Positions 38,955 to 44,245 of a stretch of 44,300 nucleotides of DNA are shown piece after piece. This DNA comes from Pseudomonadota bacterium (GTDB lineage: Bacteria; Pseudomonadota; Alphaproteobacteria; Acetobacterales; Acetobacteraceae): contig JAKAZO010000015.1 in NCBI GenBank assembly GCA_021815825.1, positions 1 through 44,300 of the forward strand, in the 5' to 3' direction. Position numbers and translations under genes: made by a program. The notes below the pieces were generated by a model. It searched no databases and had not been told where the DNA came from. It saw only the letters and a list, made by a program, of their open reading frames with translations. Position 1 is the first letter of the stretch. Each line of letters begins with the position of its first letter.

Positions 38955-39781
38955 GCGGGATAGGCCGCGAGATCGAGCCGCCCGGTGAAGGCGGTTGCGA
39001 CCGGGCCGGTCATCAGCACGTGATCGTCTGCCCGCCACTCGATGATCAGTTCGCCGCCGTCGAGCACCAGCGTGGCCCGCCGCCCGGCAAGGCCACGCCG
39101 GTGCGCATTGACCAGTGCGGCGCAGGCGCCGGAGCCGCAGGCCAGAGTCAGCCCCGCGCCGCGCTCCCAGACCCTGAGGCGCAGGCGGCCCGAGGCGAGC
39201 ACCTGAACCACGCCGATATTGGCACGCTCGGGAAAGAGCGGATCATGCTCGAGACGCGGCCCAAGCGTGGCGAGCGCTACCGCGTCGAGATCGGGCACGA
39301 AGAAGGTCGCGTGCGGGTTGCCCATGGAACAGGCGGCCGGGTCGGCGAGCGGCGGCGCGGCGAGGCCGAGATGCAGCGTGTCCATCGCACGGGCGAGCGG
39401 GATCTCCCGCCAGTCGAGCCGTGGGCGGCCCATGTCGACGGTGATCAGCCCGTCGACCCGGCGTTCGGCGGCGAGCAGGCCGGCGTCGGTACGGATATGC
39501 TGGATCGCGCGTCCGCTCTCGGCAAAGAGCAGCTCGGCGACGCAGCGCGTGGCGTTGCCGCAGGCGCCGGCCTCGGAGCCATCGGCGTTGAGGATGCGCA
39601 TTCCGGCGTCCGCCCCGTCCCCTCCGGGGCTGATGACGATGATCTGGTCGCAGCCGATGCCACGATGGCGGTCGGCGACGGCGGCGGCCCGCGCCGGACT
39701 GAGGTCGAGCCGGTCCGCCCGTTCGTCGAAGACGACGAAATCGTTCCCGAGCCCATGCATCTTGACGAAGCGCGCCGACAT
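38951..39781 (-). CDS. dapF: diaminopimelate epimerase
   Basis: Converts LL- to meso-diaminopimelate for lysine and peptidoglycan synthesis, without a cofactor. Length is 276 residues. The two catalytic cysteines are C74 (GACGNATRC) and C215 (LACGSGAC), and the N-terminus [20 protein letters not shown] is standard. ATG 39781 has no Shine-Dalgarno sequence and lies six bases after a -10-like element. First gene of the dapF-mtaB-ftsY set, conserved in alphaproteobacteria. Confidence 0.96.
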
Positions 39782-39787
39782 GCGCGG

Positions 39788-39793
39788 GTTATA
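39788..39793 (-). promoter_or_regulatory. -10 element close to dapF start
   Basis: On the minus strand TATAAC occupies 39793-39788, matching the -10 consensus at five of six positions, six bases before the dapF ATG. This would place the transcription start at or almost at the start codon, consistent with the missing ribosome site. Confidence 0.42.
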
Positions 39794-39826
39794 GTCGGGC
39801 CGCGTGGGCAGCGGGAAGGGACGTTC

Positions 39827-39855
39827 TTGCAAGCCACCCACCCCGCCGCTATAAG
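39827..39855 (+). promoter_or_regulatory. promoter of rpmI-rplT
   Basis: TTGCAA (39827-39832) and TATAAG (39850-39855) are exactly 17 bp apart; the -10 matches five of six positions. Transcription from about 39862 gives a roughly 130-base leader before rpmI, with a perfect stem CCCGCGA/TCGCGGG (39916-39922 with 39934-39940) that could take part in ribosomal-protein autoregulation. Confidence 0.6.
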
Positions 39856-39991
39856 CCCCGCCTTGCTCGCGCGCCCGGGCCCGTTGGGGCATGCCCGGCC
39901 GCAGCACCCGCCCACCCCGCGAGGTTCGCGCGGTCGCGGGAGCGCCACCAGCCAGGGAAACCCGGCGGCGCCGGAACGGAAAGGAGACAAA

Positions 39992-40195
39992 ATGCCCAAG
40001 ATGAAGACCAAGTCGTCGGTGAAGAAGCGCTTCAAGATCACCGCGACCGGCAAAGTTCTCGCCGGTCCGGGCAAGAAGCGGCACAACCTCATGGCGCGCT
40101 CCCAGAAAGTGAAGCGTGCCAACCGTGGCAGCCAGGTGCTGACCCATGCTGACGGGCTGACCGTCAAGCAGTGGGCTCCCTATGGTCTGAACTGA
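39992..40195 (+). CDS. rpmI: ribosomal protein L35
   Basis: Large-subunit protein bL35, 67 residues, highly basic: [20 protein letters not shown], then [18 protein letters not shown] 39992 follows AAGGAG. rplT follows after 13 bp. In many bacteria infC precedes this pair; here it does not, so rpmI has its own promoter. Confidence 0.97.
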
Positions 40196-40208
40196 GGGAG
40201 GGCTACTC

Positions 40209-40565
40209 ATGGCACGCGTCAAGCGGGGCGTCACCACGCACGCCCGTCACAAGAAGGTTCTCGACCAGGCCAAAGGCTATGTCGGCCGGTCATCGACGAA
40301 TTACCGCATCGCGCTGGAGCGGGTCGAGAAGGCGCTGCGCTATGCCTATCGCGACCGGCGGGTGAAGAAGCGGGAATTCCGCGCCCTCTGGATCCAGCGC
40401 ATTAACGCCGCGGTCCGTGAGCACGGTCTCACCTATTCGAAATTCGTCGCCGGGCTGAAGCAGGCCGGCATCGAGATCGACCGCAAGGTGCTGGCTGCCA
40501 TTGCCTATGATGATGCGGCGGCGTTCGCCGAGATCGTCAAGGCGGTGCAGGCCACGCTCGGCTGA
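40209..40565 (+). CDS. rplT: ribosomal protein L20
   Basis: Large-subunit protein bL20, 118 residues, an early assembly protein on 23S rRNA. It starts [18 protein letters not shown] and continues with [25 protein letters not shown] 40209 has GAGGGAGGG upstream. An array of five hairpins follows before pheS. Confidence 0.97.
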
Positions 40566-40574
40566 GCGGGGCTA

Positions 40575-40685
40575 GGCCAGGGGCCTCGCCCCTGGCCCCC
40601 CACCAAAGGCGGAGCCTTTGGAATCCATTACTGAAGTAATGGGGTCCGGGGCCTCCCGGCCCCGGCGGGTCTGGGCGGAGCCCAG
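40575..40685 (+). repeat. array of five perfect hairpins between rplT and pheS
   Basis: Five consecutive palindromes fill 111 bp. H1 is GGCCAGGGGC-CTC-GCCCCTGGCC (40575-40597, 10-bp stem). H2 is CCAAAGGC-GGA-GCCTTTGG (40603-40621). H3 is CCATTAC-TGAA-GTAATGG (40625-40642). H4 is CCGGGGCC-TCCC-GGCCCCGG (40646-40665). H5 is CTGGGC-GGA-GCCCAG (40671-40685). All stems are perfect, loops are 3-4 bases, and spacers are 3-5 bases. The sequences differ but the architecture repeats; H2 and H5 share the GGA loop. It may be a repeat-derived element, an attenuator, or both. Confidence 0.85.
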
Positions 40686-40711
40686 CCTTGCTCTCCCGCG
40701 GAGGGCCCGGA

Positions 40712-41776
40712 TTGGACGACCTGGCAGCATTGAAACACGCCACCGAAGCCGCCCTGGCGGCGGCGGCGGACCTGCGCGCATGGGATGCGGTGCGGGTCGG
40801 CGTTCTCGGCAAGAATGGCAGCCTCACGAGCCTGCTCAAGGCGCTCGGCCAAGTGCCCGCCGAGCAGCGGCGCGAGCGCGGGGCGGCGGTCAACCGCCTG
40901 CGCGACGAGCTGGCGGCCCTGGTGGAGGCGCGCCGCGCCGAGCTCGAAGCGGCGGCGCTCGATGCGAGGCTGGCGGCTGAACGGGCGGACGTGACCCTGC
41001 CGCCGCTCGCGGCCCCGGCCGGCTCGATCCATCCGATCAGCCGCACCATCGAGGAGATGACGGCGATCTTCGGCGCCATGGGCTTCACCGTCGGCGAGGG
41101 GCCGGACATCGAGACCGACTGGCATAATTTCTCCGCCCTCAACATCCCCGGGCACCACCCCGCGCGCGCCGATCACGACACGTTCTATCTGCCCGGCACG
41201 CGCGACGGCCGGCCGCTGGTGCTGCGCACCCATACCTCCAACGTCCAGATCATCACGCTGCTGACGCGCGAGCCACCGTTCCGCGTCATCGCCCCCGGGC
41301 GCACCTACCGCGCCGATCACGATGCCACGCACAGCCCGATGTTCCATCAATGCGAGGGCATCGTCGTCGACCGGGATATCACGCTGGCGCATCTCAAGGG
41401 CTGCCTGGTCGATTTCCTGCGCGCCTTTTTCGCCCTGCCCGACCTGAAAGTGCGCTTCCGGGCCAGCTACTTCCCATTCACCGAGCCCTCGATGGAGGTC
41501 GATATCGGCTGGAACCGTCGCACCGGCGAGATCGGCGCCGGCGGCGACTGGCTGGAGATTCTCGGCTCCGGCATGGTGCACCCGCGCGTGCTGGCAAATT
41601 GCGGGCTCGATCCGCGCGAATGGCAAGGCTTCGCCTTCGGCATGGGCGTCGAGCGGGTGGCCATGCTCAAGCACGGCATCGCGGACCTGCGCCCCTTCTA
41701 TGACAGCGACCTGCGCTGGCTGCGCCATTACGGGTTCTCCGCGCTCGCGCCGGCGATGCTGCACGAGGGGCTGTGA
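40712..41776 (+). CDS. pheS: phenylalanyl-tRNA synthetase alpha subunit
   Basis: Catalytic subunit of class II PheRS, 354 residues. The N-terminal coiled coil spans about 1-85; the aminoacylation core has HPISRTIEEM, GFTVGEGPDIETDWHNF, motif 2 (FRVIAPGRTYRADHDATHSPMFHQCEG) and motif 3 (GFAFGMGVERVAMLKHGI). The start is taken as TTG 40712 (LDDLAALKH matches family N-termini) because GGAGGG lies six bases upstream; a TTG at 40688 would add eight residues but falls just after the hairpin array. pheT follows after 3 bp. Confidence 0.95.
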   Translation: MDDLAALKHATEAALAAAADLRAWDAVRVGVLGKNGSLTSLLKALGQVPAEQRRERGAAVNRLRDELAALVEARRAELEAAALDARLAAERADVTLPPLAAPAGSIHPISRTIEEMTAIFGAMGFTVGEGPDIETDWHNFSALNIPGHHPARADHDTFYLPGTRDGRPLVLRTHTSNVQIITLLTREPPFRVIAPGRTYRADHDATHSPMFHQCEGIVVDRDITLAHLKGCLVDFLRAFFALPDLKVRFRASYFPFTEPSMEVDIGWNRRTGEIGAGGDWLEILGSGMVHPRVLANCGLDPREWQGFAFGMGVERVAMLKHGIADLRPFYDSDLRWLRHYGFSALAPAMLHEGL

Positions 41777-41779
41777 GCG

Positions 41780-44245
41780 ATGAAGTTCACCCTCTCCTGG
41801 CTCCGCACCCATCTCGACACCGACGCGCCGCTCGAGCGTCTGACGGACACGCTCAGCGCGATCGGGCTCGAAGTCGAGGCGGTCGAGAATCGCGCCGCCG
41901 TGCTGGCACCGTTTCGCATCGCCGAGGTGATCGAGGCGGTGCAGCACCCGAACGCCGACAGGCTGCGTGCCTGCCGCGTCGATATCGGGGAGGGTGCGCC
42001 CGTGTCCGTGGTGTGCGGGGCGCCGAATGCGCGCGGCGGCATGAAGGCGGTCTTCGCCCCGCCCGGCAGTTTCATCCCCGGTACCGGCATCACGCTGAAA
42101 ACCGGCGAGATCCGCGGCGTCGTCAGCGCCGGGATGCTGCTCTCGGCGCGCGAGATGGGGCTCGGCGAGGATCATGCCGGCATCGTCGATCTGCCCGCGG
42201 ACGCGCCGGTCGGCACGCCCTATGCGCGCTGGGCCGGGCTGGACGATCCGGTGATCGAGATCGCGGTCACCCCCAATCGCGGCGACGCGCTTAGCGTGCG
42301 CGGCGTGGCGAGGGATCTGGCCGCGGCGGGAATGGGCCGGCTCAAGCCCTGGGCGGCGCCGCCGGTGCCGGGGAGCTACCCGAGCCCGATCGTCTGGCGC
42401 ACCGAGTGGGCGGAGGCTTGCCCCTCCGTGCTCGGCCGTGCCATCCGCGGCGTGCGCAACGGCCCGAGCCCGCGCTGGCTCGCCGACCGCCTCATTGCCA
42501 TCGGGCTGCGCCCGATCAGCGCGCTGGTCGACATCACCAATTTCTTCACCATCGATCTCGGCCGCCCGCTGCATGTGTTCGACATCGCCAAGCTTGCCGG
42601 CCCGGCGCTGGTGATGCGCCGCGGCGCGGGCGAGGTGTTCCGCGGTCTGCACGGGCGTGACGTGACAGTCACCGCGGAGGATTGCGTCATCGCCGATGCG
42701 GCCGGGGTGCAGTCGCTGGCCGGCATCGTCGGCGGCGAGGCGACCGGCTGCGATGAACGCACGACGGACGTGTTCATCGAGTGCGCCCTGTTCGACCCGG
42801 TGCGAATCGGCCTCACCGGCCGGCGGCAGCAGATCGCTTCCGACGCGCGGGCCCGCTTCGAGCGCGGCATCGACGTGGCGCTGATGCCGGCCGCGCTGGA
42901 GGCGGCGACGCGCATGATGCTTGACCATTGCGGCGGCGAGGCATCGGATGTGGTGACGGCGGGCGCGGCGCCGGACCGGCGCCGATCGGCGCGGCTGCGC
43001 TTCGCGCGCCTGGCCAGCTTCGGCGGTGCCGAGGTGCCAGCCGCGGAGGCCGTCGCGATTCTCGAGCGCCTCGGCTTCGCCGTCGAAGAGCGGACCGAGA
43101 CCGAACTCCGCGTCGCGGTCCCGTCGTGGCGCAACGACGTCGCCGGCGCCCCGGCGCTCGACCCCGCGCCTGGCCTGGCCCCTGAGCGCGCCGAACGGGC
43201 GGTTGCCGGCACCGAGGCGATCGAACCGGAGTGCGATCTGATCGAGGAGGTGCTGCGCATCCGCGGTCTCGACGCCATCGCTCCCGTCTCGCTGCCGCGC
43301 GCGGCCCCGGTGCCCATGGCGACGCTGACCCCGGCGCAGGGCCGCGCGGCGCTGGCGCGGCGGGCCTTGGCGGCGCGCGGCCTGGCGGAGTGCGTCTCGT
43401 TCAGCTTCCTGGCGCGCGAAACCGCGGCCCTGTTCGGCGCGACCCCGGAGGCGCTGCGTCTGCTCAACCCGATCGCCAGCGACCTCGATCAGCTTCGTCC
43501 GACCCCGCTGGCGAGCCTGGCGCTCGCCGCCAGGGGCAACGCCGCGCGGGGCTTCGCCGATGCGGCCCTGTTCGAGATTGGTCCGGGCTTCGAGGATGAC
43601 AGCCTGGCCGGCCAGCGCGCGATCGCCGCCGGGCTGCGCACCGGGATGACGCCGCGCCACTGGCGCGCGGCGGCCCGCCCGGTGGAGTGGGTGGATGCGA
43701 AGGACGATGCGCTGGCCCTGCTCGCCGCGCTTGGCGTGCCCGCGGACAGCCTGACGAGCACGCGCGAGGCACCGGATTTTTATCATCCCGGCCGGTCCGG
43801 GGTGGTGCGTCAGGGACCGAAAACGGTGCTCGCCCGCTTCGGCGAACTTCATCCGCGGCTTGTCGGCGCGCTGGATCTGCCGCCCGCCTGCGCCTTCGAG
43901 CTCTTCCTCGATGCCATCCCGGAGCCGAAGCGCCGCCGGCGGGCCGCGCTGGAGCTGTCGCCGTTCCAGCCGCTGCGGCGCGATTTCGCCTTTCTCGTCG
44001 AAGCCTCGGTCAGCGCCGAGGCCTTGCTGCGTGCCGCCCGTGGCGCCGAGCGGGGGCTGATTTCCGGCGTCGCACTGTTCGACGTCTACGAAGGCGAGAA
44101 ACTGCCCCCCGGCCAGAAATCGCTGGCGATCGAGGTGACATTCCAGCCCCGCGAGCGGACGTTCACCGACGCTGAGATCGAGGCGCTCGCCGCGAAAGTG
44201 ATCGCGGCGGTGATGAAGGCGACCGGCGCGACGCTGCGGGGATAG
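41780..44245 (+). CDS. pheT: phenylalanyl-tRNA synthetase beta subunit
   Basis: Beta subunit of the (alpha-beta)2 PheRS, 821 residues. Domains in order are a tRNA-binding EMAP-like domain (about 39-150), B3/B4 editing domain (about 210-380), B5 DNA-binding-like domain (about 395-490), the catalytic-like core, and a C-terminal FDX-ACB anticodon-binding domain (about 725-821). Between PSWRNDV (448-454) and ECDLIEEVLRIRGLD (484 on) there is an extra ~29-residue Ala/Pro-rich segment; most bacterial PheT proteins join these directly. ATG 41780 is 3 bp after the pheS stop. Confidence 0.96.
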   Translation: MKFTLSWLRTHLDTDAPLERLTDTLSAIGLEVEAVENRAAVLAPFRIAEVIEAVQHPNADRLRACRVDIGEGAPVSVVCGAPNARGGMKAVFAPPGSFIPGTGITLKTGEIRGVVSAGMLLSAREMGLGEDHAGIVDLPADAPVGTPYARWAGLDDPVIEIAVTPNRGDALSVRGVARDLAAAGMGRLKPWAAPPVPGSYPSPIVWRTEWAEACPSVLGRAIRGVRNGPSPRWLADRLIAIGLRPISALVDITNFFTIDLGRPLHVFDIAKLAGPALVMRRGAGEVFRGLHGRDVTVTAEDCVIADAAGVQSLAGIVGGEATGCDERTTDVFIECALFDPVRIGLTGRRQQIASDARARFERGIDVALMPAALEAATRMMLDHCGGEASDVVTAGAAPDRRRSARLRFARLASFGGAEVPAAEAVAILERLGFAVEERTETELRVAVPSWRNDVAGAPALDPAPGLAPERAERAVAGTEAIEPECDLIEEVLRIRGLDAIAPVSLPRAAPVPMATLTPAQGRAALARRALAARGLAECVSFSFLARETAALFGATPEALRLLNPIASDLDQLRPTPLASLALAARGNAARGFADAALFEIGPGFEDDSLAGQRAIAAGLRTGMTPRHWRAAARPVEWVDAKDDALALLAALGVPADSLTSTREAPDFYHPGRSGVVRQGPKTVLARFGELHPRLVGALDLPPACAFELFLDAIPEPKRRRRAALELSPFQPLRRDFAFLVEASVSAEALLRAARGAERGLISGVALFDVYEGEKLPPGQKSLAIEVTFQPRERTFTDAEIEALAAKVIAAVMKATGATLRG

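What the first reader, a model, noticed from the sequence alone, without database searches (positions are those of the whole stretch)
40575..40685. Five back-to-back perfect hairpins in the rplT-pheS gap
Seen directly: five perfect inverted repeats (stems 6-10 bp, loops 3-4) with only 3-5 bases between them, in 111 bp upstream of pheS. Stem sequences are unrelated while the geometry is constant, which is unlike a single terminator or classical REP. Possible roles are a composite attenuator for pheST, an mRNA processing signal separating ribosomal and synthetase expression, or a modular intergenic element that spreads or grows hairpin by hairpin.
Basis: partly seen in the sequence, partly recalled or inferred. 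Interest (0 to 1): 0.65.

Follow-up and report, generated by a model that had tools for sequence, protein, structure and literature searches.

The report
Dispersed five-hairpin repeat before pheS
The five hairpins before pheS are one complete copy of a modular palindromic DNA repeat scattered through gene ends in many Acetobacteraceae genomes, whose hairpin stems change sequence but stay perfectly paired.

Summary
In detail: five perfect hairpins at 40575-40685, not reproduced by shuffled sequence. They are not a local invention. The array (40570-40694) is a full copy of a dispersed repeat: two outward-facing, inverted "half-elements", each an inner and an outer hairpin joined by a conserved linker, around a core hairpin. 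A covariance model of the half-element has 9 strong matches in the window's own assembly and matches in 78 of 120 family genomes (own included), 24 of them near the scoring ceiling. Solo halves, full elements and a few three-hairpin halves occur. Copies are mostly intergenic, often just past a stop codon, and cluster by genome. Stems covary strongly, almost without G-U pairs. At rplT-pheS the copy is kept in the three genus members held; 80 rplT loci of other genomes lack it. A REP/REPIN-like non-autonomous element fits best, but GTAG/CGTC tags and a matching Y1 transposase are missing. How it moves, and what it does to pheST, is inferred. About half of the long-core copies sit inside larger unique inverted repeats, suggesting strand-switching replication.

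The parts
40570..40694 (.). complete element: two inverted half-elements around a short core hairpin
   Evidence: R1 covariance-model hits 40570-40629 (-, 55.8 bits) and 40638-40694 (+, 63.0 bits)
40575..40597 (-). outer hairpin of the left half-element (stem 10, loop 3)
   Evidence: consensus outer module
40603..40621 (-). inner hairpin of the left half-element (stem 8, loop 3)
40625..40642 (.). A+T-rich core hairpin (stem 7, loop 4), the short-core class
   Evidence: core-length classes
40646..40665 (+). inner hairpin of the right half-element (stem 8, loop 4)
40671..40685 (+). outer hairpin of the right half-element (stem 6, loop 3)
40683..40691 (+). right end, CAGCCTTGC; its counterpart at the left end is TAGGCC (40573-40578)
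   Evidence: sequence; ends compared with aligned copies in other genomes
40209..40565 (+). rplT; 4 bases separate its stop codon from the element
40712..41776 (+). pheS; start read as TTG 40712 (ATG at this place in G001); the last hairpin ends 26 bases upstream
   Evidence: frame (which lists an earlier TTG at 40688 as the longest form); start choice from the orthologues; checked

Best explanation
The array is a full copy of a dispersed, non-autonomous palindromic repeat of Acetobacteraceae. SHOWN: its unit is a half-element with the order inner hairpin, conserved linker, outer hairpin, CCTT-type end; two halves face outwards around a core hairpin; it is multi-copy, mostly intergenic, more alike within a genome than between genomes, and its stems vary with nearly strict Watson-Crick pairing. 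INFERRED: it spreads as DNA, like a REPIN or MITE, driven by an unidentified host or transposase activity. Gene 3' ends tolerate it, and it may be useful there as a 3'-end mRNA structure. Perfect stems are kept because the palindrome extrudes as hairpins during replication and one arm templates the other (quasipalindrome strand switching), or because both transcripts need the hairpin. At rplT-pheS it fills most of the 146-bp gap, where several other relatives carry a single terminator-like hairpin. With 26 bases between the last hairpin and the pheS start codon, a pheST promoter downstream of the array is unlikely, so pheST is probably transcribed through or from within it, which would make it at most a partial terminator or a processing site.
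For: Similar DNA elsewhere in the own genome and in 16 of 59 other relatives. R1: 9 own matches at E<=1e-9 and 78 of 120 family genomes, own included. G121 copies align between AAGGAAGGCC and GGCCTTCCTT and not beyond. 164 distinct elements: 74 full, 90 solo; core lengths bimodal. 128 of 140 lie outside called genes, against 188 of 2,523 random positions; 54 convergent, 65 tandem, 7 divergent of 126. Nearest neighbour in the same genome for 62% of 219 halves, against 7% for shuffled labels. In genus orthologues 2 of 269 stem sites vary, against 10 of 59 loop and 209 of 1,049 flank sites. 93.1% of pair cells paired (shuffles 81.2%), 297 cells with both sides changed and 16 with one side. G-U share 13 of 1,820, against 14 of 227 in tRNA stems. 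One locus lacks the element in G000 but has it in G001 and G002.
Against: No transposition event, target-site duplication or mobilizing enzyme was shown. The one presence/absence case could be a deletion. Most own copies are shared with the sister species, so activity here is low or past. Alignment A2 was fitted to the model's structure, which favours pairing, and its two-pair helix 2 is paired in only 57.6% of cells. Linkers are also conserved among the orthologues (2 of 48 sites vary; not different from stems, p = 0.11), so constraint is not on pairing alone. G-U scarcity also fits an RNA needed from both strands. The gene caller is home-made and gave no context for the window's own copy or its two orthologues. 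Nothing shows what the array does to pheST expression.
Confidence: 0.78

Rival explanations
1. A clustered-hairpin transcription terminator or attenuator between rplT and pheST, kept by selection on RNA; the dispersed copies are terminators of the same design.
For: Copies sit a median 24 bp after adjacent stop codons, are enriched between convergent genes and are rare between divergent ones. Tails are T 41% and C 38%. A published study argues that hairpin clusters act as intrinsic terminators and has a section titled 'Presence of poly A/U trails is not necessary' (PMC8355165, abstract and section list only).
Against: No terminator pattern in 39500-42000; 70 of 243 outer tails have 5 or more T in 8. 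G-U pairs are almost absent. pheST is essential and has little room for a promoter after the array (inference). A plain terminator does not explain inverted halves, palindromic cores or lineage-specific likeness of copies.
Confidence: 0.3
2. A REPIN in the strict sense, mobilized by a RAYT (Y1 tyrosine transposase).
For: Inverted pairs plus solo units, intergenic placement and within-genome likeness resemble REPINs.
Against: PF01797 in 10 of 120 family genomes and not in the own genome; by the handles listed, 2 (G035, G116) of the 24 genomes with 40 or more R1 matches have it. No GTAG or CGTC in the window element. Two hairpins per unit.
Confidence: 0.06
3. No mobile element: intergenic palindromes arise repeatedly and are perfected by mutation alone (template switching), giving look-alike hairpins by convergence.
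For: Stems covary with little wobble. Many long-core copies have flanks that are inverted repeats of each other.
Against: Conserved linkers and half-element order across genomes; copies at unrelated loci of one genome that align over their whole length, and four half-element sequences found identical at two loci of one genome each.
Confidence: 0.08

Closest known systems
REP sequences (GTAG/CGTC-tagged families; RepRanger-type REPs)
   Same: multi-copy, extragenic, palindromic, near gene 3' ends, lineage-specific
   Different: no GTAG/CGTC tag in the window copy; unit has two hairpins; full copy about 125 bp; nearly strictly paired stems of varying sequence. PMC3733652 says CGTC repeats are missing in Acetobacteraceae (passage); PMC12306157 counts 1,369 REPs in Lichenicola cladoniae (passages), an Acetobacteraceae species, possibly partly this family (untested)
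REPINs / BIMEs
   Same: two inverted repeat units flanking a spacer; solo units also occur
   Different: two hairpins per unit, core itself often palindromic and up to about 150 bp, no matching RAYT; the REPIN definition is recalled
MITEs
   Same: short, mostly non-coding, about 10-bp terminal inverted repeats in the G121 copies
   Different: no target-site duplication seen at the one locus examined; no partner transposase identified; flanks sometimes inverted repeats of each other
Intrinsic terminators / hairpin-cluster terminators (PMC8355165)
   Same: GC-rich hairpins just after stop codons
   Different: no T-run pattern in the window; dispersed repeat family with conserved linkers

Membership tests
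REP | extragenic location | tested here: met
   128 of 140 elements outside called genes
REP | multi-copy with a shared consensus | tested here: met
REP | GTAG or CGTC tag beside the hairpin (the two super-families of PMC3733652) | tested here: not met
   none in 40566-40700 on either strand; no one tetramer occurs near a hairpin foot in more than 18 of 244 halves
REP | short single palindrome (14-40 nt in E. coli, PMC12306157 passage) | tested here: inconclusive
   the recurring unit modelled is a two-hairpin half of about 57 nt, but R1 itself models two hairpins, so solo single hairpins were not sought
REPIN | inverted pair of REP-like units | tested here: met
   74 of 164 elements are outward-facing pairs
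REPIN | associated RAYT / Y1 transposase in the genome | tested here: not met
   absent from the own genome; 10 of 120 family genomes, 2 of 24 high-copy ones by the handles listed
MITE | terminal inverted repeats | tested here: met
   AAGGAAGGCC...GGCCTTCCTT in aligned G121 copies; shorter in the window copy
MITE | target-site duplication | tested here: inconclusive
   none visible at the one presence/absence locus
MITE | partner transposase acting in trans | not tested
   only PF01797 and one GIY-YIG protein were searched
Intrinsic terminator | hairpin followed by a T-run | tested here: not met
   0 found in 39500-42000, shuffles 1.2 on average
Any Rfam family | covariance-model match | tested here: not met
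   no match at E<=1 in 40000-41000; in 6 other loci two matches below their gathering scores, one of them (RF03836, a microRNA family) inside the core palindrome of L119

The most novel reading that the evidence does not exclude
A class of palindromic DNA that maintains, extends and perhaps spreads itself by hairpin-templated strand switching during replication, without a dedicated transposase. Its stems mutate as pairs, modules are added in tandem, cores and even unique flanking DNA become inverted repeats, and the same grammar recurs outside its class of bacteria.
Probability: 0.18. Interest if true: 0.82.

Novelty: new variant of a known kind. Interest (0 to 1): 0.56.

Why it matters
It gives a large bacterial family a defined repeat that decorates gene ends, probably helps to break short-read assemblies (several matches lie at contig ends) and could serve as a marker. 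The near absence of wobble pairs and the inverted flanks offer a natural record of how palindromes are copied and corrected in bacterial replication, a question usually studied on reporter constructs.

Tried and rejected
Rfam: nothing for the window; two matches below their gathering scores in other loci. Terminator/promoter scan: none. RAYT: rejected as general mobilizer. GIY-YIG as mobilizer: the core of one element (L104, G006) encodes a 125-aa protein with a GIY-YIG match (PF01541, 22.8 bits, cut-off 22.6). Three other family genomes of 120 have weak matches. Of their loci, L259 and L261 hold no R1 match; L260 has an element about 1.3 kb away and a weak match nearer, but none enclosing the gene. 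So it is most likely a passenger. Plasmids and phages: the genus copy (L097) has no plasmid match; other copies match two plasmid records and one of these again; no phage record. L137's flank repeat could be a fold-back assembly error: it stops after 74 bp on both sides, of which about 14 are element end, but the locus holds N bases, so L137 and L138 were left out (they are). Own-genome counts: the matches on C3 and C18 are almost certainly one locus at overlapping contig ends, so 9 strong matches mean about 8 halves at 7 loci. In one search the C3/C20 set counted one hairpin only, so its compensatory change (seen) is not in that table. Before grouping, 31 of the 275 rows were left out: reverse-strand echoes, repeats of the same place, and weak matches.

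Full report
OBSERVATION. The rplT-pheS gap (40566-40711, 146 bp) holds five perfect hairpins exactly where reported. With the settings used it is the only multi-hairpin array in the window. In 200 dinucleotide shuffles of the window no array exceeded three hairpins, and 20,000 shuffles of the local 146 nt never exceeded two. The pheS start is read as TTG at 40712 (ATG at the same place in G001), 26 bases after the last hairpin.

IT IS A REPEAT. A DNA search of the own assembly with the gap returned six other places, two of them probably the same locus. In a draw of 60 genomes, 17 matched: the own and 16 of 59 others. The best named rplT matches include Acetobacteraceae such as Asaia and Komagataeibacter. 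Reading the copies side by side shows a fixed grammar. A half-element runs GGNNTCC - inner hairpin - GG(C/T)GGG(G)TCC - outer hairpin - CCTT-type end, with variations. A full element is two halves pointing outwards around a core. The window's five hairpins are outer, inner, core, inner, outer.

COUNTS. A covariance model (R1, 57 positions, 15 pairs, built from 48 halves) finds 9 own matches at E<=1e-9 among 17 rows at E<=0.1. It finds 78 of 120 family genomes at E<=1e-9, own included; 24 of them have 41-46 matches where at most 46 were scored. In a class-wide draw of 240, the own genome and 3 others matched at E<=1e-8, all 3 outside the family by the listing and with weak scores. In a phylum-wide draw of 398, 50 matched: the own genome, 1 other of the family, 5 of the class outside the family, and 43 outside the class. 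Examples from that last group have two or three tandem hairpin modules with similar linkers (L327, L330, L331, L335). Kinship there rests on model score and linkers; independent origin is not excluded.

FORMS. From R1 hits on held loci (244 of 275 rows used) I grouped 164 distinct elements: 74 full and 90 solo. These loci were fetched because they matched, so the shares are not population estimates, and the window copy and its two orthologues count apart. Core lengths are bimodal: 31 of 74 are 19 bp or less, like the window's; 37 of 74 are 59-152 bp; 3 lie between and 3 above, the longest 493 bp. Of the 38 cores of 55-200 bp, 32 contain an inverted repeat scoring 12 or more, where shuffled cores reach at most 10. 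Whole long-core loci such as L186 and L119 fold as one giant hairpin, the window copy as a row of hairpins. G121 copies align between AAGGAAGGCC and GGCCTTCCTT and not beyond.

PLACE. With a home-made gene caller, 128 of 140 assessed elements lie outside genes, against 188 of 2,523 random positions. Of 126 with both neighbours, 54 are convergent, 65 tandem and 7 divergent; the background is 119, 361 and 87 of 567, which includes the element-bearing pairs. The median distance to an adjacent stop codon is 24 bp. The caller gave no context for the window copy or its orthologues; there the genes are tandem. A named example, 62.8 bits, lies a few bases past the end of an oxidoreductase gene on a Rhodovastum atsumiense plasmid.

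STEMS. On 147 distinct aligned halves, 93.1% of pair cells are paired (shuffles 81.2%), and 297 cells carry changes on both sides against 16 on one side. Four of the five measures were reached by 0 of 500 shuffles, the count of further pair types by 1. The two-pair helix 2 is paired in only 57.6% of cells, and the alignment is fitted to the model. Helices 1 and 3 hold 13 G-U among 1,820 standard pairs, against 14 of 227 in acceptor and T stems of tRNAs from the same loci (20 found, 228 pairs kept, which is 19 tRNAs). In eight orthologous sets within the genus (six of three species, two of two), 2 of 269 stem sites vary, against 10 of 59 loop, 2 of 48 linker and 209 of 1,049 flank sites. Stems differ from loops and flanks but not significantly from linkers. 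Selection or correction therefore seems to act on perfect pairing and on the linkers. The scarcity of wobble points to DNA-level pairing or to need in both transcripts.

HISTORY AT THIS LOCUS. The three genus members held keep the five-hairpin array at rplT-pheS; in G002 one inner stem has a C-to-T change that leaves a G-T pair. None of the 80 rplT loci fetched from other genomes has an R1 match at E<=0.01. Several of the 25 gaps that I read by eye (for example L021, L024, L025, L028, L032) carry one hairpin with a T-run. The own genome shares most other copies with its sister species. One copy, present in G001 and G002, is missing in G000; there the element begins at the neighbour gene's stop codon and I see no target duplication. 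This shows gain or loss, not which.

FLANKS. In many full copies the two unique flanks are inverted repeats of each other. Without L137 and L138, 18 of 69 score 14 or more, against 6 of 332 mismatched pairs within the same genome and 0 of 414 across genomes. This is a property of long-core copies (19 of 39, with L137 and L138 included), not of short-core (0 of 31) and hardly of solo copies (3 of 80). L137 has 74 perfect bp, about 14 of them element end, that stop on both sides. The window copy scores 8, at the control level. Published work describes template switching that homogenizes or extends inverted-repeat arms, in yeast (PMC8604942 and PMC3820800, starts of abstracts in the listing only). 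I infer a similar process here.

MOBILIZER. Y1 transposase is found in 10 of 120 family genomes and by the listed handles in 2 of the 24 high-copy ones. The GIY-YIG gene in one core is not general. Other enzymes were not tested. Copies cluster by genome (62% same-genome nearest neighbours among 219 halves, 7% expected; G001 and G002 left out), which fits amplification, or homogenization, within lineages; the machinery is unknown.

JUDGEMENT. This is a dispersed modular palindromic repeat, nearest to REP/REPIN-type elements, that fails two of their defining tests (tag and RAYT). Its effect on pheST is untested. With only 26 bases left before pheS, complete termination by the array is unlikely (inference).

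Noticed in passing
L104:1608-1985 (G006:C301): A full element whose 493-bp core carries an ORF with a GIY-YIG domain match (PF01541).
   Followed up: yes
L247:12755-13918 (G022:C1): Two pairs of half-elements, 178 bp apart within each pair, with other short hairpins between: a local duplication.
   Followed up: no
   Followed up: partly
L253, L255 (G283); also L250: Two-hairpin units with different linkers, in L253 and L255 as outward pairs, in another family of the class.
   Followed up: no
window:40712: pheS appears to start with TTG here and in G002 but ATG in G001.
   Followed up: no
L155:1551-1609 and L315: In G001 and G002 the element abuts or supplies the stop codon of the upstream gene; G000 lacks it and has a different C-terminus.
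   Followed up: partly
L015, L016, L019, L023: Downstream of rplT the long open frame begins within a few bases and does not look like pheS by eye, so the gene order may differ in these relatives.
   Followed up: no
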